NCBI GenBank assembly: GCA_020744425.1
Contig: JAGMUV010000008.1
Span: forward strand, 1,550,001 to 1,614,000
Length of the DNA: 64,000 bases
Direction: 5' to 3'
Origin: Dactylonectria macrodidyma
Taxonomy: Eukaryota > Ascomycota > Sordariomycetes > Hypocreales > Nectriaceae
The position numbers were made by a program, and so were the translations under genes. The notes beneath the pieces are model-generated. The model ran no database searches, was not told the DNA's origin, and saw only the letters and a program-made list of their open reading frames with translations. Positions 3,216 to 62,925 of this stretch are shown piece after piece; position 1 is the stretch's first letter; every line of letters begins with the position of its first letter.

Positions 3216-6200
3216 TTACCAGTACGCCGGTCTCAGACCCGCAAAGTTCGACAACGCCGCCGCCGGGTTTTCATCGCTCTCCTTCTTCCGCTGACCGCTC
3301 AACTGGATATGTCGTTAGGATGAGCTGATGGAGTGATGTTGGTGAGAAAATAGGTTCAACTTACCTCGAGCTGGACGCCCTTGTGAATGTGCACAAGCCA
3401 GTCCACATAACTCTGCGCCTCGTTGTTTCGATCCTCAACTAGCATTCTCGCAAAGTCAAATTCGGCGCCATCGATACCCTGGCGGGCGAGCTGGATCGTG
3501 AGGCCCTTGGATCCACGCATCGTCCGGAGAAACTCGATAATGTTGCGGACCTGAGCATTGAGATGAGTTTCGAGCACAGGTAGCGCTGACGTGTAGGCAT
3601 CCAAGCCCTTGAGCGAGTCCTTGTCCGAGCCGAATAGGTCCGAGATGAGATTGGGCGATGTTTGAGAATGGAACCAGAGGAGGCACTGCTGTCCATTGTC
3701 AACCAGATAGACACCGCCAGGCTCAACGCGCGAAAACGACGTGCGAATGGAAGGTGGCATCCTCAGGTGGCCAGTCTCAGCGTCGGCGAAGCCATCCTCG
3801 GGCTGGAGGTTGTGAATGGGAATCATGCGTGGGTACAGATACAAGCTAAGCTCGAGAGCGCCCATTGAGCGCAGCATGCGCATCTCATAGACTCTTCGGT
3901 CAGAGTTCTCAATGCCGCCCTTGAAGGCACGGGATTTGATGAGACCCAGTAGATACATGCAGAATTCCTTGAGTCTTTCGGGCATGACCAGCTGGCCAGG
4001 AGGGTATTGCTGAGCAGAGTGCTTGCGATGACAGGCCAAAATATCAATTGCTTTTTCGCCGAGCCAGTTGCGGATATCCTTGAGGTTGCTCGAGGTCGTT
4101 GCCAACTTCGTGCTTGCCTCCTTGGCTAGCATGCCTAGAACTGCGTCTTGGTCCACAAACTTGAGGCACTCGCGAATGCCCTGCTCGCGGTTGTTCGATT
4201 CCTTTGACGTCTCGGTGACACTAGCAATGACATTGGAGCATCGAACGCGGCGTTGACCGGAAGCCGTTGTGTAGAGGAGGGCGGATTGGAAGTGCGCGTC
4301 TAGTTTGGCATCTAGCTTTCCGTCATAGGAAAAGGACACACCCATTGCCTTGTCGGCATCGATGACTCCAATTTCCAAGTCCGCGCCAAAGGTGTGCTGG
4401 ATAAAATTTCCGTGATAGGCCGAGACTTGAAGCCCGTTGGAGCAACGGACCTTCATTAAGGCCTGGAAACCTGTCTCTCGCGTCACAGCATGTGAGATTT
4501 CCAGAGACAGTTTTCGGCTGTCTCGCGGGGCAATAAAGTTTGGATAGTAAAACGTCTCACCCCCAGTAGTAGCGGAAACATGACCTACACATTATTAGCC
4601 ACAAAACTATGATCAGAGCGTCAAACATACCGATTGTGGCAATATCCAGGTAACCACCAGATGGCGCAGCGAGGAAGAAGTCAGCACCGATACCTGAGGC
4701 TGCCATCTTCTCGGAGACCTTCTTCCAAGCTGGATGCTCGGTGGTGTAGAGCTTCTTGTCAATTTCACCTCCGGGGTGGTTTCCATCGTCACGCATAAAC
4801 AGCCGTCCAGGACCCCAGGTTGGGAGCGCCGAGCATGAAGCAACTACCTTGCCTCCCGTGGGCTCGAGTGCAGCAAGCGCCGAGTTAAGGGCTGCAAGCA
4901 GAGCGGGCTCAGGGTTCTTGATGACCGAAAACATGTCGGGTAGTCGTGTGAGGAGAGACGTGATGACCTCCTTGGACTCGTACGGGTCGACAAAGAGGCC
5001 CTCGCTCAGGGGCACGAATGGGTCTTCTAAGTCGGGCATGATCATCATCTGAGCTTGATCAAGAGCGGGCTGGTTGCGGTTAGAAATTTGATTCGTTAAA
5101 TGACTGACAAAACTTACATTGACGTTGTAAAAGTGAATGTCCTTGTCATATGTGACAAAGCCGACCTTGGCACCCTCTGGTATCCTTCGCTTCGGCTCTC
5201 CGTTCTCATCCTTTTCGTGATCCTCGCCTCCGTATAGAGCGACCAGGATACCTTCGCAAAAAGCCTCGACGAAGCCCTTGTTGTAGGACTCCTGAGTGAC
5301 ATCAATCAGAAACAACCATCGCAAGCCAACGGGCTCTCTGGTCCAGTACTCCTTGGGTACTACAAATTCTACGGTACCACGGTGGAGCTCGGGTCGCGAA
5401 TCCCGGTCAACTCGAACGCCTTGGGGTGAGGTGGCGCAAAAGTATTCGGGGGCGGTGTCGTTGGGGTATGAGCAAAGATTGCAGACAAACTTGTTGCCGC
5501 CGGATCGGAACATCATGAAAGGGTTCATGTAAGCCCGGCATCGCCTGCATCGTGGTGGACCAGCATCTCCAAAGTCGAGGACCGGAATCTCAGCCTCTCC
5601 CGGCTGGAGAGGAGCCAGAGGTTGCAACAGCATTCCCAAGGAGAGGCCGGTGGCAGTGAGGGCATCGGTCGTGGAGGGAATATTGTTGAAGGTGAGACGA
5701 GTGTATTTCGGAGACGAGTTGCCCTGGTCAAAGGCTACGTATGAGACAGTTGCAGGCGGAGGGACGTGTCGCTCAAACGTAGGATAGACATTCTTGAGAT
5801 AATGTTGCTGGATGACGTCTCGCGATGTTGGCACACTGGGCAGATCCTCTGGAGAGGCAGTAGATCCGCCAGATGCGACGTTGGCGGCATGGCTGATCCC
5901 GCCCTGGTCTACAGATGGTCCAGGGCCGTAGGCAGAAGTTGGCGCTGAGAATTGGCTCGCGTTGACCATCTGGGGGGTGCCCTGGGGAGTGGCCTGTGGG
6001 CTGCCGAATTGACCGCCAAAGCTTGGGGCTCCGACTGTATTATTGAGGAACTGGCTCGCAGGAGTTCCCGGGGGAGGCATGCCATTGAAGGCTTGCGAGG
6101 AGCCCGTGGGCTCGACGGTGTGGTAGGCATGGCGGTCCTTCTTCTTTCTCCTCGCAGTGCCATGCCCGTCTCCCAAGTTCATTCCTCCGAGTTGCGCGGC

Positions 6201-6494
6201 CAGCGAAGCATCTGCGGAGGGAGGAGCCTGACCGGCCTGATAACCTTGCTCTTGAGGAGGAGCATATCCATAGCCAGGTGCTGGAGCTGGAGACCCGGTC
6301 ATGGGAGGAGGAGCGTGATGGCCACCGAGATATTGGGGCCCGCCATAACCCGGAGCTGGAGGAGCTTGTTGCTGGTACGGGTTTGGTGCTACGGGATGAT
6401 GGAATTGCTGTGGCGCCGGCTGAGGGGATCGATTCGAATCGTTGGGGTCAACTTCGCCCTGGCCGAGAGCGTGATACTGGGCATAATCGGCCAT
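3216..6494 (-). CDS. SEC24: Sec24, COPII coat cargo-binding subunit
   Basis: Sec24 pairs with Sec23 on the ER membrane and selects cargo for COPII vesicles. Exons on the minus strand are 6494-5118, 5069-4631, 4584-3365 and 3302-3216, giving 1,040 residues, a normal length. The start is placed at the ATG at 6494 (MADYAQYHALGQGE), the usual N-terminus of filamentous fungal Sec24; the frame stays open upstream but that part is not Sec24-like. Residues 1 to about 230 are Pro/Gln/Gly-rich and disordered. A zinc ribbon is visible with Cys316, Cys319, Cys338 and Cys341, followed by the trunk (LRWLFLIDVTQESYNKG), the beta-sandwich/helical region and a gelsolin-like C-terminal part ending RPAYW. All three introns have GT-AG borders (62, 46 and 48 nt). 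The 48-nt intron (5070-5117) is stop-free and frame-preserving. Confidence 0.96.
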
Positions 6495-8525
6495 GGTGAA
6501 GATGGAGCTGCCAGGAGGATGAGGATCGCAGGTGTCTATCGGACGAGCATGCGCCGGGTTAAGGAGTACGTGGGGCAAGTCAAGCCTGGTGGTCGGTCTT
6601 CGGGTAGGTCGGTGGCTGGCGAGAGGGAGGGACAGCAAGGAGACGCTGAAAGACAAAATTCGAGAGGCTCAGACACTAGGAAAGGCGGACATGATCTCGT
6701 AAATACTGCGTCGGTGAATCGTTCGGAGACGGCCTGCAGTTCCTGGTGATTCGATAACCGGAAATACTTGGTACCCTCTCTCCTGCCTCGCTGGCCTTTT
6801 CGTCGTGGTGGCTTCCACTTTTTGGGATCGATCGTGCCCGTTTCCGCCTTACTCTGATTGGCAAGGTTCGGCGTGTCAGGATAAGCCTAGCACTGTGGTG
6901 TGGACTGTGTCCTATCGGTGGGATCATGTGATTCCACTGTGTCAGTGAGGGGCGGTTCCTGCGCCTGAGCATGCAAAGAACGGGATGCCGCCCATTTGGC
7001 TCAACCTGATTCACCAGATGGTGAACTTATTAGATAGTTGAAGAGGGGCCATTTACTCATGGTGGTTCTAGGCACGAAATGCATGCTGTCGATTGACGCG
7101 ACATGTTCCTGGTCAAGCGCGTGCCTCCACAGGACAACAGGGTCATCTCAAACGCCAACACGTGTTAAGTCATGGAAGGATAGGCGCCTGTAGAGACCGT
7201 ACTATCCTAATAAAGGCCCAGTAAAGACAGCACATGCGTATCAGTGTGGATCTCGGCTAAAAAGTGCACGCTTGAAGATCTCATGGTAGCACTACCGTAG
7301 GTAGGTAGGCTATCTACACTCGCTCGCTTGTAACGGCCGAAGAGACGATCATGTGTATCTGTAAGTCGCATTGTGAAGAAGCCGAGGAGCTAACGATAGA
7401 AATTCAAGGACCGAAGAAACCGGCGTTTATAAGCGCTTACCTCCAGCGACCCATTGATCTAGGTTATGGATGAGGCCTTCACGATGCCTAGAGGCACGCC
7501 GTTACTGAGGGAGTAAGTAGGAACAATAGCTCCGTGCCTCATTGAATGCTTATAGACACCTGGAAGCCTCGACCATCGTTTACGCATCCTTGAACAATAA
7601 TGATTGCTCTGGTGGCTGGTCTGGGCCTAGTTGAGCAGCTGGCTCAACAGGCTGACGGACACTGAGGCTGACGCGCGGCTGTCTGTGGCAATTCTCTAAC
7701 ACCGAGCATGTAGGCAGTAATATAGTTGTCCAGCGTAAGAAAAAGGCCAGATGACGAAAGAAAGTTCACTTGAGTTACACCAGTGGCAGGTGATTTGAGG
7801 TGTGGGGGAAAATCTTGGTGGCGGGAAGTGGCCGTCTTTGGTCCCATGACGCCCGTCCGACCGTGTAAGTCTTGACCTGGCATCAACGCGCTCCCTACCC
7901 ATCGACAAATGCTTGAGCGTCCATTTAAAATTGCAAAAGTGTCCCGGAGATGCATGCACACATTCCCAGAATGATAAAATGAGTAAATAAGGAGAATCGT
8001 GCTGTGAATGGAGGGTGGTTGTTGGGAGTGCTCGAGAGTGTGGATAGCTTCAGATGCGACGCGGAACGCGGCGATCCGACGTGGAAGTGACTTTGGCCTC
8101 TTTGGGCGATTTCACAGCTGAAACAAATCGGAGCAACACCAAAACACATTCAAAGACGATGCTGATACCGTCCGATCCATCGACGAGCAGCACGAGGAGT
8201 CAGGAGGAGCTGGCGGTGCGGCAATCTCGAATGCGACAATGGGCAACGGTATCGTTGATGCGCCATCTAGACTGCACCACGGTGAGGATGCCTCGTCAGC
8301 AAGAGCCAACAACTCGGCGAATCTAGGCGCGGTGACCTAGCGCAAAATCCTGGAGCGAATTCCAAAGGGCACTCGGAAAATGGCGCATGAAAATCGTAAA
8401 GGAGGGTCAGTCGAGAAGCGCGAGAATCGAGGGAAACGAACACTCGGGGGGACGACGTCCTCGCCCATTCTGCCAGACCAAGATCACAGACTGGTACACC
8501 TCACCCGAGGTGATGTCGGGGCTGG

Positions 8526-20266: not shown

Positions 20267-22033
20267 CTAATAGATCGTCACAGTTTGCGTCTCCTTGCCT
20301 CGTTCAAATGCCTCGCCAGACATGATTCCCTGGACGTAGCAAAGACCTCCAAAGTCATAATCGTTGTCGCCTCCCTCTCTGCGGTTCACAGTAAACGGGA
20401 AATTTCCTCCGTAAAATACCCAGACTTCTTCTCCTGGCTGCGTCTTAAGGTGGCCGATGCCCATCAACCCTGTTTTGGTGACAAACATCCGCTGGTTCGT
20501 CATCATCCCCTTAATTGTTCGGTGAGTCCAGTATTGCTCGCCGGTCTCGAGATACTTGTAGACCGTCTCAACGTCCTCGTCGTCGGCCGGTGCCTCGACT
20601 CTCTGCTCCTCGTTTCTCAAAAGATCGCCCAGCATAAGCCTTCCGAATGCCTCGCGAAAAGATAATCCTCCGAGATAGGTATCTGGTGTTTCTGGTGTTA
20701 ACTGTTGGATGTGCTCTTTGGCAATATGCTCCCAGTCCTTGATGAGCGCACGCTGGTCGGCATTGTAGTCGGAACCTGGTGGCCTTGGGCTAAGCCATAC
20801 TTCGCCGACAGTTTCAATCGTGTCGACAAAGACTCCCTTCAGCTCTAGAGTATACTTGGTTTTCTCCCGTCGCTTCAGCAGTTCGCCAATGTTGAGATGC
20901 CTCCCGCCATGGGCCTTGTACTCGGGCCAGGCAAACATGTGAAACCAGTCGGTGTTGTGTTCAGAAATGTACGATGCATCAAGTGCCCAGCGGGGCATTC
21001 CGGGCGTTGCTGCTTCGCCCTCTAACCGCGGGTCCATGATGAGAGGGAAAAGACTCTCGTCGCTCACCATCAGGCCAAAGCTCAAGTCGCAAAAGACATC
21101 CACCACGGGCCTATCGTAGTCGCAGTCCTCCACTGTCGGTAGTGATCCAGCTGGTAGGAGCCCCATCAATGCGTAGGCCTTGTCACGGGGATCCGTGGCT
21201 CTGCGGTTCCGGTACCGATTTATCACAAACGCTGGGACGTCGTCGCTGCCTCTGGCACTGTCTACCCAGATTGCCATAGCCATTAGATCGGCCAAGGTAG
21301 GGGTTTTAAATGAAGGAGTAAGGCGTTCATAGAGGAGACTCGGGATGCCTCCAGTCCAGGTTCTCGTGGCGTGTGTCAAGGTTTTCCATGGAAACGTCGT
21401 CGATCCCCAGAGGATCGTCTGCTGCGGTGGAAGAACAGCTTCCTGGACTGTCCATACTCGGCTCCACCAAGGTGTTGTATGCATCCCCAGAGACTCTAAG
21501 GCCTTGAGTGGTCCTTTGAAAGATTCGTCAGACTCAAGCGAAGACGGAAGCGTGATGCCTTCTTCAACCCCTCCCGCCTCGAACAAGGCGGCCATGTACT
21601 TGAGAATCTCCACCGCTTCCTCGGCGTCAGCCTGAGGGATTCCTTGATTGAACTCTCCCATCCATATCTGACAGGTCTGACACTTGGAGTAGATTTGCCG
21701 CATCAGACGAACCTGCTGGGCCTTTTCTTTCGTATCCCACTGGTTGATGCAAAGCTGGTCGATCCAAAGAGCTCGAGATTGGTCTGCTAGTCGCAAGCGC
21801 TGTAAAAGCGAGTGCAGATTTTTCGTCACTCCCACTTTGCGACCCGAGATTTCAACGTCAATGAGGGATTCGCTGTTCCCCCAGACATATGAGATGGCAT
21901 CATATTCCGGGTTCGTCTCCAGCGCCGCAACTCTTAGATCACCCTTTAGTAACGACTCGCTGTCGCCATTGTGAGGGAGGAGGTACAGTATGCGAAATTC
22001 GTTGCGTGAAATCATCTTGGCAGATTGCAACAA
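20267..22033 (-). CDS. HET (heterokaryon incompatibility) domain protein
   Basis: Single-exon gene of 588 residues. The HET domain covers roughly residues 40-200, with its three conserved blocks visible: YDAISYVWG (44-52), LWIDQLCINQ (89-98), and a later block around WWSRVWTVQE. HET domains share a TIR-like fold and trigger programmed cell death after fusion of incompatible hyphae; most genomes hold dozens, and few have proven allelic function. The C-terminal 350 residues carry no recognised repeat or NACHT partner domain. The first ATG (22033) is used here, though Met7 is an alternative. No partner gene such as a SesB, PLP or NLR gene lies beside it. Confidence 0.93.
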   Translation of the reverse strand: MLQSAKMISRNEFRILYLLPHNGDSESLLKGDLRVAALETNPEYDAISYVWGNSESLIDVEISGRKVGVTKNLHSLLQRLRLADQSRALWIDQLCINQWDTKEKAQQVRLMRQIYSKCQTCQIWMGEFNQGIPQADAEEAVEILKYMAALFEAGGVEEGITLPSSLESDESFKGPLKALESLGMHTTPWWSRVWTVQEAVLPPQQTILWGSTTFPWKTLTHATRTWTGGIPSLLYERLTPSFKTPTLADLMAMAIWVDSARGSDDVPAFVINRYRNRRATDPRDKAYALMGLLPAGSLPTVEDCDYDRPVVDVFCDLSFGLMVSDESLFPLIMDPRLEGEAATPGMPRWALDASYISEHNTDWFHMFAWPEYKAHGGRHLNIGELLKRREKTKYTLELKGVFVDTIETVGEVWLSPRPPGSDYNADQRALIKDWEHIAKEHIQQLTPETPDTYLGGLSFREAFGRLMLGDLLRNEEQRVEAPADDEDVETVYKYLETGEQYWTHRTIKGMMTNQRMFVTKTGLMGIGHLKTQPGEEVWVFYGGNFPFTVNRREGGDNDYDFGGLCYVQGIMSGEAFERGKETQTVTIY

Positions 22034-23925
22034 GTGTTGGTGCTGTCCCTCCAGAGATGAGGCGTTTTCTCCTCACATATATGGGTGGACCCTGGTCAGC
22101 AGGGGCATGAAGCCATTGGTACCTGGTCCATGGACGTCAGCTTACTGATAGAAGTCCTTGGTTCCAGATTCGCAGACGAAGTGTAACATTCTCGGGATTC
22201 AGGTGCCAATGACACTCGACCCTTTGACTCAAGTCGTTGCAGGTCTGCCAAAGGAGCCGTTCATCGGTTGCATTCTGAGTCCGAATAGACGTCAGAATGT
22301 TTTAGAATGCGCCTGGAAGTAACTCATGTCTTGATGAAAATAAAAGCCGTGATCTCTGCTCCGAGAAAACCTAATAGAATTGTTATCACTAAGCGGTTTA
22401 TGCTGGCTGCTAATGAGAAAGAGCCACCCATACCTGGCGGCATTCAGTGCCGGAGTCACCTGAGTTGTAGCATCATGTGCTCCTTCCATTGGCGCAGATC
22501 AATTTCCTAGGTGCATCAAATTAATCTAGTTTCTAAATGTAGGTAAATCAATAACCTCCTCCATCCATCGTCGGTCATTCTTTATCGCTTCTCACCTGTC
22601 CCTTAGTCTTGTATTTTTACCATGTTCACTGATCGCAAAGCATCTCGAGTTTGCTTGGACAGGGAAGCCGCTCAACCAACTCCTCTCCCGGAACCTACAG
22701 AGGGAAATATGCCAGGACAGATTCACTCACCCCATGGCCAACTAGAAAGGCCGATGCTCCAACAGTCAACCTCTCGATTGAAACACTTGTAGGACAGGCA
22801 GTTGCGGAAAAGGTTAGCACGCGGTTCCGAAACGACAGACTGTGGGGAGCGCGGTCTATCGTTTGAGCACTTCGATCATCGCATGACTTCATGTCCTGAG
22901 CTGAGACGTGCTCCTCAGTGCTCGTCGGTTCGTGTGCAAGTCCAGGCTGGGCCCTTGAAAAGAGTGCTGACAACTCTCAGGAGATAACACCACCTTCCAT
23001 CGGATCGTGCCACAGTGCTGGGGGATACAATCAATACCAGGCGACTCGGCCGACAAGTCTCCGTAGTCGCCTTGCTCAACGGTTTCGTCGGCGGCATTGG
23101 ACATCTCCACTTGGATCAAGCCGCTCAAGCTTCCCCAGCTCACCCGGCGACCCGGAAATCAAGGAAATCAAGGTCCACAATGGAAGGGAGCGGCGCCGGA
23201 GAGCACAAGAGTCGGAGACAGAGACGGAGAAAAACCGGGGTTCATCGGGCGACGGAACGGTCACGGTTTACTCGGCTCCGACGGCGGACGAGGGCACTCG
23301 GCCGCTCGTGATGGCCGGAATGGTATTGGCGACATCGGAACTAGACCGGCTGAGTTCCAAGGCCAGGCGCCGAGAGGAAACGGAACAAGGCAAATAGAGC
23401 CGGACAAAAGGGTCTATGCTTGGGGATTCAACGATTCATTTAGACATCTTTAGGGAATGTGCCCTGGTGTGCCGCGTTTATCCAGGGCAGTTCTGAATCA
23501 AATTGAATACTGCCATCGGCGCTTTGTTCAACTTGCCGAAAATCAAAGACTGAAGTGTCGGCGAATCGTTGCTCGGAACCGAAAGGGGTAGCTAACAGCG
23601 TTACAAGTTCGATCGGGCATAGACCGAGGCATAGAATGGCAGCCGTTGGTTGGCTGTATTTGAAGTAGTGGCTGCCATCGGCTCCGAGACAATGGGGTTG
23701 GTCTGGCTAGAACTGGAGAAAGCTGGGGTTTATTGGCGATTGCCGCCCGGGTTGCGTCGGATGACTTCATTTATTTGGAAGCTTTTCCCGGTCGTAGCAC
23801 TGTCTCGTGCGTTATCTTAAACCATTGATCTAAGCTTCAGTTGCTCTCTTCTTTGACACCTTCAAATACCCCGTCCAGCCGTTCTTGTTCTCAACCTCCA
23901 ACTCTCCACTACACAGCAATTCACA
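22034..23925. other. Divergent intergenic region, 1.9 kb, no gene seen
   Basis: This lies between the HET gene (-) and glutaryl-CoA dehydrogenase (+). The plus-strand frame at 22918-23397 is Arg/Ser-rich and lacks any signature. The last 100 bp before 23926 are CT-rich, as expected for a leader. Confidence 0.5.
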
Positions 23926-58274: not shown

Positions 58275-59498
58275 CTACTGTCGTCTCGCTACAACCTCAT
58301 CCTCTCTGCTCTCCTCCCCTGTCACTCCCCCGCCACTGAGTCGGCTGCTCTCCGTCTTGAAAGCCGATCTAAGCCCGCCACTGCTCGGCTTCGAGTTTGG
58401 GGCGCGTGTCGCCCGTGATCCCTCCCGTGCCTGTTTCCGGAGCTTCCGTGTCTCAACGCTGAGATGCTGAGGCTTCTTTGCTTTGTAGACCGCCGCTGCT
58501 GCGTCATCCGCCACGCGAGATTTGGCTCGCCCATCCAGGTAATTGAGTCGCGAAGACCCAGGCAGTGCAGGCAGCGGCGGTGGAGGTGAGGCCGAGAATA
58601 GGGGTTCGGGGGCGGCGATGCTCTCCATGCTCTGTCTACGAGCGAGACTTCGGTTCTTGCGGCGGAGATCTTCTTTGCTCTGCGCTTTGCCAATGGAAAG
58701 TTGTTTGCGGGCAGGCGATTTCCCGTGAGCAACCTCGCCCTGTGCCATCTGCTTCTCCACCTTCTCTCTGAAGTAGGCCGCTCGTTCCATCTTCTCCGAC
58801 TTGTTCTCGAGTCTTCCAGTCATCCAAATGGATGAGCAAGGCGGAACAGGGTCTTGGTTTTCGAATGGATTCCAGTGCGTAGAGGGCGCAACGGGAGTTG
58901 TAGGCATTTTGCTACCACCGCCATGATGAGATCGGAGGCGCTTGCGGAAGAGGCTGCCAAACCCTGAAGTTGGTGTTCGTGGTGTCCGTGGAACGATAGG
59001 TACCTTTGGCTCCGCCGATGGTGCGTCGGTCTTCTCTGGCTTGGGCATGTTGATGCTGCTTTGCGGAATTGGCGGAGGGGCCCGGCTCGGCGGGTTGAGT
59101 CCATGAGTAGAGAATCGGTGAGTCTCAACAGGATTCACAACAGTCTGATAAATCGACTCCTGGGTGGCGTCATGTGTAGTGCTCGATGCGCTAGGCTCGA
59201 GTCTTTGTTTGTTCAAGATGTTGTTTCCAATGGGGTGCCCGACCGACTCCATGTAGCCAAACTCGTTTCGGTGTACGCTGTTGTCATGGGCACGACTATC
59301 ACGTTGCTCTGTGTCCATTTCTCTCCAAAGTCCGAGGCTGTTGATGCCCGGCGTCGTAGTGGTCTGCGCTCTCTCGATGTTCAACGGGACTCCATGTTGA
59401 GTAGGTCGATCCGAATGCGAGTTTGTGTCAGACGAAGCACCAGGGGCTTTCTGGGCAGCTCGCTTTTCTTTTACCGACCCTTTGAGAACCGTTGAAAA
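58275..59498 (-). CDS. Third segment of the large interrupted gene
   Basis: 407 codons open directly behind the UAG at 59499-59501 and in the same frame as the two upstream segments; they end at a UAG at 58275-58277. The first ATG is only at 59318, 60 codons in, and the codons before it look like protein (FSTVLKGSVKEKRAAQKAPG), which argues for a continuation and not a separate gene. The segment is basic, Pro/Ser-rich and largely disordered, with RTPRTPTSGFGSLFRKRLRS, a WNPFENQDPVPP block, a charged coiled-coil-like stretch (ENKSEKMERAAYFREKVEKQ), and a PPPPLPALPG run. Family and function are unknown. If translated separately from the ATG, it would give about 347 residues. Confidence 0.6.
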   Translation of the reverse strand, partial: FSTVLKGSVKEKRAAQKAPGASSDTNSHSDRPTQHGVPLNIERAQTTTTPGINSLGLWREMDTEQRDSRAHDNSVHRNEFGYMESVGHPIGNNILNKQRLEPSASSTTHDATQESIYQTVVNPVETHRFSTHGLNPPSRAPPPIPQSSINMPKPEKTDAPSAEPKVPIVPRTPRTPTSGFGSLFRKRLRSHHGGGSKMPTTPVAPSTHWNPFENQDPVPPCSSIWMTGRLENKSEKMERAAYFREKVEKQMAQGEVAHGKSPARKQLSIGKAQSKEDLRRKNRSLARRQSMESIAAPEPLFSASPPPPLPALPGSSRLNYLDGRAKSRVADDAAAAVYKAKKPQHLSVETRKLRKQAREGSRATRAPNSKPSSGGLRSAFKTESSRLSGGGVTGEESREDEVVARRQ

Positions 59499-59501
59499 CT
59501 A
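59499..59501 (-). other. Second internal in-frame UAG, in a hairpin loop
   Basis: The codon follows RNLRPPE and precedes FSTVLK. On the RNA, bases 59511 to 59488 can fold as an outer ACCG/CGGU stem and an inner UGAA/UUCA stem with a UAGUU loop. The adenosine of the stop is base 59500 (a T on the plus strand). Fold by eye only. Confidence 0.65.
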
Positions 59502-61610
59502 TTCAGGCGGTCGCAGGTTTCGTCTGTTGCCCATAGTCGGAGACTGAGGAAGCGTGGGCGACGAATTGTAGTCTCTGTTGTGTCGTGGGGTGAAGCCAGA
59601 GGGCCCGTCTTCTGCGACGTTGAATGTCGACTCCGACTCAATGGTGTTCCAAGACTGCTTTGGGCTCACTGCGGTCGATGAGGATGGTAGAAGAGCCTTG
59701 GGAATCGTAGGAGAGTCGCCAACGATCGAAAGCTGAGACTTCATTGTCTCCAAGGCCCCTTCGTCTCCGCTAACTCCAACCGCCTCGCTCTGCATTTGTC
59801 CGAGGTCGACCATGTCGAAAAGATCCTGCATGTCGTCTTTGGGTTCTCCATCCCCACCTGTATTGAAGTCTCGCGAACTCTTTGGCCGTTGGCTCTCCTC
59901 CTGCTCAGCCGGCTGGGACACGCGGCGGCCCAGTCTGAGCGGCTCTGGTTGCAATTCCGAAATGATGGAACTGCTGTCGGATGCGGTGCTCCAGAAGTGT
60001 GCAGAAGATGCTTGAGGGAACTTGGGAAGCTCTACTACGCTGACGCTCTGCGCTAATCTGGCCTTTCTCGCGTCCTCTGGACGCAGAAACCCACCGGCGC
60101 CTCCGATGACGTATCGTGCCAGCGTGGATGGTGTGAGTCGTGAAGTCTGTTGGGCGGCAATCGGGAAGTGAGCCATCGGAGTGCTGGTTTCGGGCGATGT
60201 GTTTGGCTGAACGCTGCTGTAGTCGATGACTCTGATCTTGGGTCCTGGGTTCGTGAAGTCGACCGAGGAGAAGTCTTCGGTGAATGGTTGAGGTCGCTTT
60301 CCGGAAGACTTTCGCGTACTGGGGTCTGGAGTTGCCAAAAACTGGTCCATCACTTTCTCTGTGTACAGGGCAGTCTCTGCACTGGCTTCCGATAGTGGTG
60401 ACGAAGTGCTGGCTTCTCCATCCTTGCATACCTTTCTCCAAAACTCCTGCTTCTCGTGGCGCTGATGCGGCTGGTCGTGGTGGATGATCATTGCAGGTTC
60501 CTCTGGAAGGTCGTTTGCATAGATACTTCCAGTGACTGGAGGAGAGATGACATCGCCGATTGCTTGGTGCTTCTCCTGTTCGTCTTCTTTGTCTGGGGGG
60601 CTTCCTTGTTCCGGTTGCAGGTGCAATCCTTGCTCGGTGCGTGGCACGGTAATCTCGCCTCCGTCGTGAGGAGTAGATTCGTCGGATTGTGCAGTCGCTT
60701 CAGTCTCAACTTCAGGCAACCCAGTGTTTAAGGATGAAATCGCATCGCTCACGTTATCATAGTGTAGATCCATTAGGGGAGAAAGGTCTGGCAGGTCGTC
60801 CAGGTGCAGTGACAGACGCGGGTAGGCTGAGGCTGGTGCGTCTACCTTGACTGTTATCACGGACTCGTTATCAGAGTCATAAAACTCCGGATTGGTGAGG
60901 CTGAGAGTGCTCCCACCATTGTTGCCTCCCCCGACACCAAGGTCTCGTCGAATGATGTGCGGGATCCGAGGGATAATCAGGAACTTGTCCCAGCGCGGCG
61001 ACCAGTAGCGAGCCTCCTTCATTCTGGGAAGTTCGCAGGGCCGATTCTCTCGCTCGGCCAGTGCCTTTTCAATGAGGTACATTCGGGCATATTCCATCGG
61101 CGACAGACGTGGCTTCGCAAGCTCGTACTTCATCTTTGGGCCATCTCTCGGGTGAGAGAACCGCTTGGGGACATCTTTGCCGTCAGTGACGATGGGTATC
61201 ATGTCAGACTGAGGTCTCGCGCATAAGTTCCGGGTGCCAGTCTCGGGAACATGCCCGGGGTCGGAAATTTGCACCTTCATCGCAGGGCGACGATTCTTTT
61301 TGCCAAGTTTCAGTGTACCAGATGCGTCCTTTTTGGCGGGAGGCTGTTTCGTCGACAGCTCTTCAGGCAAAGTAGGATCGTCGGGGTTCGATCGTGATTG
61401 CATCTTCTTGATGAATTTGGCCGATTTGGCGGCAATCTCTTCGATTGGAGGCAGGGGAGGGACTGGGGGAATTTCTTCCTTCTTTGCCTGGCGGCGCATC
61501 AACTTTCGAAGTCGTTTGGCGCCTTTGGACCTCTTGGATCGTTTGGAGGCTTTAGAGTTAGAGCTGGCGACATTTTCGTTCTCTTTCTCGTCGTCAGAGT
61601 CGATGCTCCA
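59502..61610 (-). CDS. Middle segment of the large interrupted gene
   Basis: 703 codons open directly behind the UAG at 61611-61613, in the same frame as the upstream segment. The first ATG is at 61499, and the 37 codons before it are protein-like (WSIDSDDEKENENVASSNSK, then a Lys/Arg-rich run). Visible blocks are a proline stretch (EEIPPVPPLPPIEEIAAK), KPRLSPMEYARMYLIEKALA, a compact block (EARYWSPRWDKFLIIPRIPH, then IIRRDLG), GSTLSLTNPEFYDSDNES, and long acidic Ser/Pro-rich disordered parts. It ends at a UAG (59499-59501), behind which the frame continues at once. I recognise no family. Treated as a separate gene, it would begin at 61499 and give 666 residues. Confidence 0.65.
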
Positions 61611-61613
61611 CTA
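61611..61613 (-). other. First internal in-frame UAG, in a hairpin loop
   Basis: The codon follows QEVNSRDV and precedes WSIDSDDE. On the RNA, bases 61625 to 61598 form a stem of AGUCGA with UCGACU, a two-base bulge, three further pairs, and an eight-base loop CUAGUGGA that holds the UAG. The adenosine is base 61612 (a T on the plus strand). Fold by eye only. Confidence 0.7.
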
Positions 61614-62925
61614 GACATCTCGACTGTTGACCTCTTGCGGAATGAGCAACCCTAGAATCGACATCTCCAACGGTGACAAGTCGAGCTCCTTTGCGAGAGG
61701 GTGCTGGCAAAAGTCCGTTTCGGAAAGGTCTTTGGGGTAGCAGAGGACGGGTGGCTCAACCTTGTCACGAGTAAAGGCTGCGCAGTCTGTCTTGGCTGGT
61801 GAAATCTCGCGGCCAGGCATTCCTTTGAGTAGTGGGTTCGATGCAATGGTGACAGAAGGAGTCGGCGGCATGAGAACAGACGAGTGTTGAGAATCAAAGG
61901 ATGCGTCGCCACTGGTTGTGACATCGGGAGTGGCCTTCTTCGGGGAGGTTCCGGAGGGCACAAGGCTTGGTACACTACCCTCGGTCGATAGGTAGGACGA
62001 TTCCGTAGATGAAGTTGGCCCGTACATTTCGATCGGACTCTTCTGGGCCAAATCGTGCAAGATGGCCAAGCAGGACTGTTCCAGCTTCTTGGATTCTTCA
62101 CAGTACTTGCTTAGGGCGTCTCGACCTTCAGCATATCCGGCGTTGTCACAGAACCCGAAAAGCTTCATCTGAATCATCAGTTTCTGGTGATCGGAACTGC
62201 GTTTACCCCGCATCAAGTACTCAAAGACGGAGAATCGAATGCTGTCTCGAAGGCCGGGTGAGTAGGGTGTCGGATCGATGTCGCCTTCATCTTGAAAAAC
62301 CACAAAAGGGGGGAAGAGTGCGTTGAGTCGAGCCATCAACTTTAGTGTTTCCTCATCACTCTTGGTCAAGTCTTCGATCAAAGCCTGCAGGTTTCACCGG
62401 TTAGCATCGATAATTATTTCAGGAGGAGTGTGGGTTACTTACGCAAATTCTGAAAACCATGTGGAACCGTCGGTAGTGAGTGGAGGCATGATGGTCAAGC
62501 TCGTCAACGAGTTGAGCCTGGTGTTTCTCAAGCGCTGTAGTCTCCATCGCGCTCTTTGTCGCTTTCATGAGGCGGAGACGATGAAATTCCATCGCATCCA
62601 AATAGCCGAGCCCATCCAGAAGTCGAGATCGGTCGATACCTCCATCTCCGGTGTGCCTGAAAATGTTGCTGGATGCTTCTTTCAGGTGTTTCCGGGGGTT
62701 AGCACCGTAGTTGATGCCCTTTGCAGAGCGAATAGCGGGCCAAGCGGCTTTGATCTCAGCCTGGAGAGCAGGATCGTTGTCAAGGGCGCGTAGCTTGCGT
62801 TGAACATCTTGGGCGAAACCACATTCTTGAGGGTTGAGGTCGTTGTTGGGGTCAAGAAGTCGTGTCAGAATTTCGTGGCCGGAAGTGAGCCACCACTCCT
62901 CGAGCTCTGCCGCGAAAGGCGGCAT
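61611..62925 (-). CDS. First segment of the large interrupted gene
   Basis: Exons 62925-62443 and 62384-61611 give 418 residues up to a UAG. The 58-nt intron has GTAAGT, a CTAAC branch site and TGCAG, so this is an expressed-type gene start. The ATG lies in CC-ATG-CC context; the protein begins MPPFAAELEEWWLTSGHEIL. The first 230 residues look folded and mainly helical (RSRLLDGLGYLDAMEFHRLR, EKHQAQLVDELDHHASTHYR, DEETLKLMARLNALFPPFVV). The next 120 are Ser/Thr/Pro-rich, and the end is ELDLSPLEMSILGLLIPQEV. Behind the UAG the same frame continues for 703 codons. With both internal UAGs read as sense, the product would have 1,530 residues. The family is unknown to me. Confidence 0.75.

What the first reader, a model, noticed from the sequence alone, without database searches (positions are those of the whole stretch)
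58275..62925. One 1,530-codon reading frame interrupted only by two UAG codons: candidate for A-to-I stop-codon correction
Seen: the minus-strand segments 62925-61611 (one intron), 61610-59502 and 59498-58275 share one frame, and each is closed only by a UAG. Behind both internal UAGs the frame is at once open and protein-like for 37 and 60 codons before any ATG, so separate genes are an awkward reading. Known: Sordariomycetes carry out A-to-I mRNA editing during sexual development, with a strong preference for UAG (to UGG, Trp) and for hairpin loops. Some genes with premature UAGs depend on this to make full-length protein. Inferred: this locus is such a gene. Alternatives are translational readthrough (neither context is the efficient UGA-CUA type), recent pseudogenisation, or three genes in line.
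Basis: partly seen in the sequence, partly recalled or inferred. Interest (0 to 1): 0.92.

Follow-up and report, generated by a model that had tools for sequence, protein, structure and literature searches.

The report
Ancient mid-gene stop awaiting RNA editing
A fungal gene carries a stop codon in its middle that sits at the same place in relatives from four families of the order Hypocreales, and the fungus likely edits it away in the messenger RNA, so that one gene would make both a short and a much longer protein.

Summary
The protein matches Dactylonectria macrodidyma.

The two UAGs differ. UAG1 is ancient: of 111 homologues from three searches, 41 end exactly there; of 31 from metagenomic or unnamed sources that cover the place, 28 stop there and three read through with Trp, Tyr, Tyr. 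Parsimony puts a stop at the root of the sampled tree. Its neighbours fit published A-to-I editing preferences (5 of 6 preferred, none disfavoured, as at a PUK1-like kinase's first UAG). The genome holds that UAGUAG kinase and an Ame1-like copy with the editing-specific MV pair.

UAG2 is known only from Dactylonectria: 26 of 28 homologues have varied sense residues there, none Trp, and its context is poor (2 preferred, 3 disfavoured), though it lies in a hairpin loop.

Verdict: UAG1 is very probably a premature-stop-correction editing site; UAG2 may be a new end or a weak site. No RNA was available. The short form's fold weakly resembles telomere protein Poz1, a lead only.

The parts
62443..62925 (-). 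exon 1, codons 1-161, start ATG at 62925
   Evidence: aligns from residue 1 with homologues P0001-P0005
62385..62442 (-). intron 1, 58 nt, GTAAGT donor, GCTAAC branch-like site, CAG acceptor
   Evidence: same exon junction in P0001
61614..62384 (-). exon 2, first stretch, codons 162-418; end of the default short form (418 aa)
61611..61613 (-). UAG1 (codon 419), conserved premature stop; candidate A-to-I site is the A at 61612
59502..61610 (-). middle stretch, 703 codons, conserved behind UAG1
59499..59501 (-). UAG2 (codon 1123), seen only in Dactylonectria; A at 59500 in a 5-nt hairpin loop but poor editing context
58278..59498 (-). last stretch, 407 codons, conserved in related genera
58275..58277 (-). 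final UAG; most full-length homologues align to this end

Best explanation
This is a single gene whose first in-frame UAG is a stop codon conserved at one place across the fungal order Hypocreales, and it is likely corrected from UAG to UGG (Trp) by A-to-I editing of the mRNA during sexual development, so that the gene would make a 418-residue protein by default and a much longer one when edited. Shown by sequence: the interrupted frame; a stop at the same position in 41 homologues; coding conservation on both sides; Trp or Tyr at the place in the three apparently unspliced relatives that read through; a context matching published editing sites; an Ame1-like copy with the MV pair and a PUK1-like UAGUAG kinase in the same genome. 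Inferred: that the stop is UAG in the relatives too, that the Tad2-Tad3-Ame1 complex does the editing, that it happens in fruiting bodies, and that both forms are made. UAG2 is a younger stop known only from Dactylonectria: left unedited, the edited product would end at 1,122 residues; inefficient editing of UAG2 in its hairpin loop would give some 1,530-residue protein.
For: Stop conserved: 41 of 111 homologues end at it, 39 of the 41 exactly 8 residues after the P of LGLxxP as in the window, 2 after 9. Of 31 proteins from metagenomic or unnamed sources covering the place, 28 stop there and 3 read through with Trp (P0103) or Tyr (P0070, P0101) and identical spacing (SRDV-W-YNFDSDDE against SRDV-*-WSIDSDDE). 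Parsimony on a midpoint-rooted tree: root state stop, 2 losses. Gene models hide the place with small introns at differing positions (37 of 111 skip it), the sign published for PUK1-like genes (PMC4817773, passages) and CHE1 (PMC11169179, section 7). Five models (P0013-15, P0082, P0097) resume with Tyr where homologues have Ser, which implies exon end TA before an intron G, hence UAG. Editing context -2 to +4: 5 preferred, 0 depleted (preferences: PMC9600606 section 6); 60 of 1171 UAGs in the window, itself included, are as good; equal to UAG no. 1 of the PUK1-like kinase. A in a hairpin loop for flanks of 12-25 nt. PUK1-like tandem UAGUAG at a kinase CD**SIG site. Of three DUF726 loci only one has MV 31 residues before the catalytic Ser, the pair essential in FgAme1 (PMC11087585 section 17). 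Against neutral decay: about 8, 28 and 14 nonsense changes expected on the Dactylonectria branch in the three stretches; the only one seen is UAG2 itself.
Against: No RNA evidence. UAG1's A is not in a hairpin loop when 30 nt are taken on each side, the published setting (P 0.16-0.18), and hairpin loops are common around UAGs anyway (33% of 600 sampled at 30 nt, 57% at 15). The stop codon was read from DNA only in the window; elsewhere it is inferred from gene models, which favour UAG by construction. The Dactylonectria copy evolves about 3.6-3.9 times faster than Cylindrodendrum's in all three stretches and has lost about a tenth of otherwise invariant residues, where four sister species lose 0-5%, which points to relaxed constraint in this lineage. 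Two of three read-through relatives have Tyr, not Trp; Purpureocillium P0081 shows Lys in its model. UAG2 has a poor context (1103 of 1171 UAGs as good or better).
Confidence: 0.76

Rival explanations
1. The ribosome reads through UAG1 at some rate without editing, giving the long form by programmed readthrough.
For: A conserved stop with conserved coding behind it is also the signature of programmed readthrough; Tyr is a known insertion at UAG (recalled) and is the residue in P0070 and P0101.
Against: The base after UAG1 is U (UAG UGG); this is not the UGA-CUA type nor UAG-CAR-YYA (motifs recalled). Editing is known for 69 further genes of this kind in F. graminearum (PMC4817773, passages), and a Trp occurs at the place in P0103.
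Confidence: 0.1
2. An in-frame intron over UAG1 is spliced out in some transcripts, as gene predictors assume.
For: 37 of 111 homologue models skip the place; FgBUD14 uses both editing and alternative splicing (PMC11156358 part 2). 34 in-frame GT-AG pairs span UAG1.
Against: None of the eight best-scored of these pairs (the only ones printed) has a GTRAGY donor (best GTCAAC); the models disagree on the boundaries; the supposed intron sequence is conserved as protein up to the stop and is read in frame without gap in P0070, P0101, P0103.
Confidence: 0.06
3. In Dactylonectria the gene is decaying: UAG2 is an ordinary nonsense mutation and the last 407 codons are now dead (this concerns UAG2 and does not exclude editing of UAG1).
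For: None of 28 homologues shows Trp at UAG2 and 26 have other residues, its editing context is poor, and the whole gene runs on a branch about four times longer than its sister's.
Against: Behind UAG2 there is no frameshift or further stop in 407 codons; the rate ratio there (3.87) is like that before UAG1 (3.75); invariant residues are kept 53 of 60 against 117 of 129 before UAG1. About 14 nonsense changes would be expected there had it been neutral all along. A very recent loss is not excluded.
Confidence: 0.3
4. Three separate genes in line, each with its own start.
For: Some databases hold pieces as separate proteins (P0006, P0021, P0023).
Against: 37 and 60 codons of protein-like sequence precede the first ATG; frames that run on through the place exist in three relatives; pieces begin at differing Met codons.
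Confidence: 0.02

Closest known systems
PUK1 and the other premature-stop-correction (PSC) genes of Fusarium graminearum (PMC4817773; passages read)
   Same: In-frame UAG in an exon, predictors insert a false intron, preferred editing neighbours; the paper says most of the 69 have no known domain, and that PUK1 orthologues have UAG or a genomic G at the place.
   Different: Editing is not observed here; this gene carries a second UAG, known only from Dactylonectria, 704 codons downstream. Whether the F. graminearum orthologue (P0075, chromosome 3) is already one of the 69 listed genes could not be read (supplement not available).
CHE1 / ZAO zinc-finger genes with the OLD deaminase (PMC11169179 abstract, passages and section 7; PMC12754623 passages)
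   Same: Conserved UAG between a short and a long form; the same three kinds of annotation error.
   Different: No Pfam domain, so no zinc finger found, and no OLD-type deaminase (PF14441) match on this contig: 10 matches in the genome, none on C76.
FgBUD14 (mentioned in PMC11156358 part 2)
   Same: A UAG that is both edited and lies in an alternatively spliced intron.
   Different: Identity not tested here by sequence; no Pfam domain was found in the three stretches.
Poz1 / TIN2 shelterin bridge (fold only)
   Different: No sequence match, no significant Foldseek match; helical bundles can reach such Z by chance, and talin reaches 10.7 in the second model.

Membership tests
PUK1-like A-to-I premature-stop-correction genes | in-frame UAG inside an exon of a single gene | tested here: met
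   UAG1 place read in frame without gap in P0070, P0101, P0103
PUK1-like A-to-I premature-stop-correction genes | frame behind the stop conserved in relatives | tested here: met
PUK1-like A-to-I premature-stop-correction genes | preferred nucleotides at -2 to +4 (UAG1) | tested here: met
   5 of 6 preferred, 0 depleted
PUK1-like A-to-I premature-stop-correction genes | preferred nucleotides at -2 to +4 (UAG2) | tested here: not met
   2 of 6 preferred, 3 depleted
PUK1-like A-to-I premature-stop-correction genes | edited A in a predicted hairpin loop | tested here: inconclusive
   UAG1 yes at 12-25 nt flanks, no at 30-50; UAG2 yes at all eight flanks tried; background 33-57% of 600 sampled UAGs
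PUK1-like A-to-I premature-stop-correction genes | automated models avoid the UAG by false introns or end at it | tested here: met
   37 of 111 skip it and 13 annotated proteins end at it; P0001 lacks 14 codons (42 nt) there
PUK1-like A-to-I premature-stop-correction genes | editing cofactor Ame1 (DUF726 with MV pair) in the genome | tested here: met
   1 of 3 DUF726 loci; orthology to FgAme1 not tested by a tree
PUK1-like A-to-I premature-stop-correction genes | Tad2 and Tad3 deaminases in the genome | tested here: inconclusive
   7 PF00383 matches, not assigned
PUK1-like A-to-I premature-stop-correction genes | A-to-G change in RNA of fruiting bodies | not testable with these tools
   no RNA reads available
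OLD-ZAO module | target lies next to an OLD (OTT_1508) deaminase gene | tested here: not met
   10 PF14441 matches in the genome, none on the window's contig C76
OLD-ZAO module | long form carries C2H2 zinc fingers | tested here: not met
   no zinc-finger family among matches up to E 1 for the three stretches
Poz1/TIN2 shelterin bridge proteins | TRFH-like helical domain | tested here: inconclusive
Poz1/TIN2 shelterin bridge proteins | binds Tpz1/TPP1 and Rap1 or TRF | not testable with these tools
   needs binding assays

The most novel reading that the evidence does not exclude
The gene is the missing Poz1/TIN2-type telomere-bridging protein of filamentous fungi, and an ancient UAG lets RNA editing switch it from a short vegetative form to a long sexual-stage form; in Dactylonectria a second UAG adds a third, doubly edited form.
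Probability: 0.1. Interest if true: 0.9.

Novelty: new member of a known kind. Interest (0 to 1): 0.6.

Why it matters
A stop codon kept at one place in four families of Hypocreales while the coding sequence behind it stays conserved suggests that the stop itself is useful. If edited, it would be a widely conserved premature-stop-correction site and a clean case for asking why fungi keep a stop that must be edited away, rather than writing Trp in the genome. It can be tested at once with existing Fusarium perithecial RNA data. If right, dozens of public gene models of this protein are wrong in the same place. It also shows that two UAGs in one frame can have quite different histories.

Tried and rejected
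Orthologue DNA: no relative in viral contigs or genome contigs, so the stop codon could be read from DNA only in the window. Pfam on the three stretches: one weak match (PipA, E 0.21, below its cut-off), taken as chance; on the 39 members of A2 only matches of E 0.068 or worse. Profile search of PDB sequences: best E 0.048, to a bacterial secretion substrate, taken as chance. Paralogue in the genome as an intact copy: none found. TRF-docking motif [FY]xLxP (recalled): none in the window's protein. Papers naming six homologue locus tags: none. CHE1 as the same gene: rejected (310 aa, zinc fingers); FgBUD14 not tested by sequence. A paper with more PSC genes (PMC10776026) is not held, and the supplementary tables of PMC4817773 could not be read. 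The listings show no paper on this gene, but I do not know its F. graminearum locus name, so a report under that name would be missed. P0039 and P0042 (Fusarium decemcellulare) were dropped from the 'ends at the stop' count because their last residues are not homologous; by alignment column alone, one search counted 37 of 42 (those two included, P0067 and P0069 not). The label 'unspliced' rests on source labels and on starts inside exon 2, not on DNA; P0031 may be from a spliced transcript. The two structure models share all alignment rows in a different order and are not independent. In the free trees the placing of the window's sequence beside Ilyonectria and Cylindrodendrum has weak support (38, 74, 58), so the branch lengths are from a fixed topology.

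Full report
What is there. The gene lies on the minus strand. Exon 1 (62925-62443), a 58-nt intron (62442-62385) and exon 2 (62384-58275) give one frame of 418, 703 and 407 codons, parted by UAG at 61613-61611 and 59501-59499 and closed by UAG at 58277-58275. The other five frames of the spliced sequence hold 30-69 stops each. In the genome (77.3 Mb, 77 contigs) a relative's protein matches only this locus. The protein P0001 of Dactylonectria macrodidyma is the same as the window's up to UAG2, except that it lacks 14 codons around UAG1 with one changed residue at the junction; so the window is from that species or one very near it (inference).

One gene. A homologue search with the frame read through gave 28 proteins; 20 of them have 1,408-1,583 aa, from Cylindrodendrum, Ilyonectria, Neonectria, Stylonectria, Cosmosporella, Fusarium, Paramyrothecium and Sarocladium. 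Among 21 homologues over 1,300 aa all three stretches hold conserved blocks: for example PRLSPMEYARMYLIE behind UAG1 and KKPQHLSVETRKLRK behind UAG2.

UAG1 is ancient. Searching with the first stretch alone gave 42 proteins, of which 37 end at the window's UAG1 by alignment column. A profile search gave 87, many of them seen before. Of the 111 different proteins, 43 were classed as ending there, of which two (P0039, P0042) were dropped as not homologous at the end, leaving 41; 17 run on past the LGLxxP motif, 37 skip the place in their gene model, 14 do not cover it. In 39 of the 41 the stop comes 8 residues after the P of LGLxxP, as in the window, in 2 after 9. The 41 include Fusarium verticillioides, Metarhizium rileyi, Ophiocordyceps camponoti-floridani and Sarocladium strictum, of the families Nectriaceae, Clavicipitaceae, Ophiocordycipitaceae and Sarocladiaceae. 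Among 31 proteins from metagenomic or unnamed sources that cover the place and appear unspliced, 28 stop there and 3 read through with the same spacing: P0103 with Trp (SRDV-W-YNFDSDDE), P0070 and P0101 with Tyr. On a midpoint-rooted tree of 49 sequences, 21 labelled stop (five of these from the window or from gene models), 3 sense and 25 unknown, parsimony gives a stop at the root and two losses. The Purpureocillium model P0081, with Lys at the place, was left unknown and would add a loss.

It is exonic and it is UAG. The three read-through sequences show that the place is coding, not intron. In five annotated models (P0013, P0014, P0015, P0082, P0097) the exon after the false intron starts with Tyr where homologues have Ser, which fits if the first exon ends in TA and the intron starts with G: the codon is then TAG (inference). 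Models favour UAG by construction, so this is no unbiased count. In the window, 34 in-frame GT-AG pairs span UAG1, and none of the eight best-scored has a GTRAGY donor; for UAG2 there are 4, none with a branch-like site. The pattern of errors (ends at the stop, starts at a later Met, false small intron) is that described for CHE1 (PMC11169179, section 7); false introns are also described for PUK1-like genes (PMC4817773, passages).

Fit to editing. Published preferences for -2 to +4 are C/U, U, A/G, G, A/G, A/G (PMC9600606, section 6). UAG1 has 5 preferred and none depleted; 60 of 1171 UAGs in the window (both strands, itself included) are as good; the first UAG of the PUK1-like kinase scores the same, its second 3 and 3. 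UAG2 has 2 preferred and 3 depleted; 1103 of 1171 are as good or better. Folding: UAG2's A lies in a 5-nt loop (UGAA-UAGUU-UUCA) at all eight flank lengths tried (12-50 nt); UAG1's A lies in a hairpin loop for flanks of 12-25 nt but not 30-50. Of 600 sampled UAGs of the window, 57%, 48% and 33% do so at 15, 20 and 30 nt. Primary sequence is reported to matter more than structure, and loops to matter most where the neighbours are poor (PMC9600606, abstract and section 7), so weak editing of UAG2 is possible.

The machinery. The genome holds a kinase with tandem UAGUAG at CD**SIG; tandem UAGUAG in the kinase domain is the mark of PUK1 (PMC4817773), but orthology was not tested. It has three DUF726 loci; one, C45:3921673-3922725 minus, has MV exactly 31 residues before the catalytic Ser, as MV500-501 and S531 in FgAme1, where the pair is essential for editing (PMC11087585, section 17). 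At that distance the other two have AH and SL. The alternative OLD deaminase system is unlikely: 10 matches in the genome, none on this contig.

UAG2. Of 28 homologues aligned, 14 have R there, 4 K, 3 D, 2 G, one each S, N and P, and 2 a gap, P0001 among these because its model ends at UAG2; none has Trp. On a fixed topology of 11 sequences the Dactylonectria branch is 0.435, 0.836 and 0.708 substitutions per site in the three stretches, against 0.116, 0.234 and 0.183 for Cylindrodendrum: ratios 3.75, 3.57, 3.87. Residues invariant in ten others are kept in 117 of 129, 65 of 73 and 53 of 60. So the whole gene is fast in this lineage, with no extra loss behind either UAG. Neutral drift along that branch would have left about 8, 28 and 14 nonsense changes inside the stretches; the only one seen is UAG2 itself. 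UAG2 is thus either recent or tolerated through editing; these data cannot tell which.

Verdict. UAG1: very probably a premature-stop-correction editing site, widely conserved in Hypocreales; editing itself is inferred. UAG2: real, known only from Dactylonectria, of unknown use. Whether the Fusarium graminearum orthologue is already in the published list of 69 could not be checked.

Noticed in passing
58277-58242: The final stop is also UAG; behind it the frame stays open for ten codons to another UAG (58244-58242).
   Followed up: no
58275-62925: The whole gene evolves about four times faster in Dactylonectria than in Cylindrodendrum.
   Followed up: partly
L009 (G000:C12:4374800-4376900, minus): PUK1-like kinase with tandem UAGUAG at the CDWWS-like place, a likely second editing-dependent gene in this genome.
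   Followed up: partly
L008 (G000:C17:201500-206500, plus): A frame of 860 codons (kinase match in its C-terminal half) broken only by two UAGs, another candidate of the same kind.
   Followed up: no
G000:C45:3921673-3922725, minus (L012): Likely AME1: the only one of three DUF726 loci with the MV pair.
   Followed up: yes
20270-22072: HET-domain (heterokaryon incompatibility) gene.
   Followed up: no
3359-6668: Sec23/Sec24-family gene in two overlapping ORFs, probably joined by an intron.
   Followed up: no
P0081 (Purpureocillium lavendulum): Gene model shows Lys at the UAG1 place and is named after a cytochrome P450, perhaps a fused or misnamed model.
   Followed up: no
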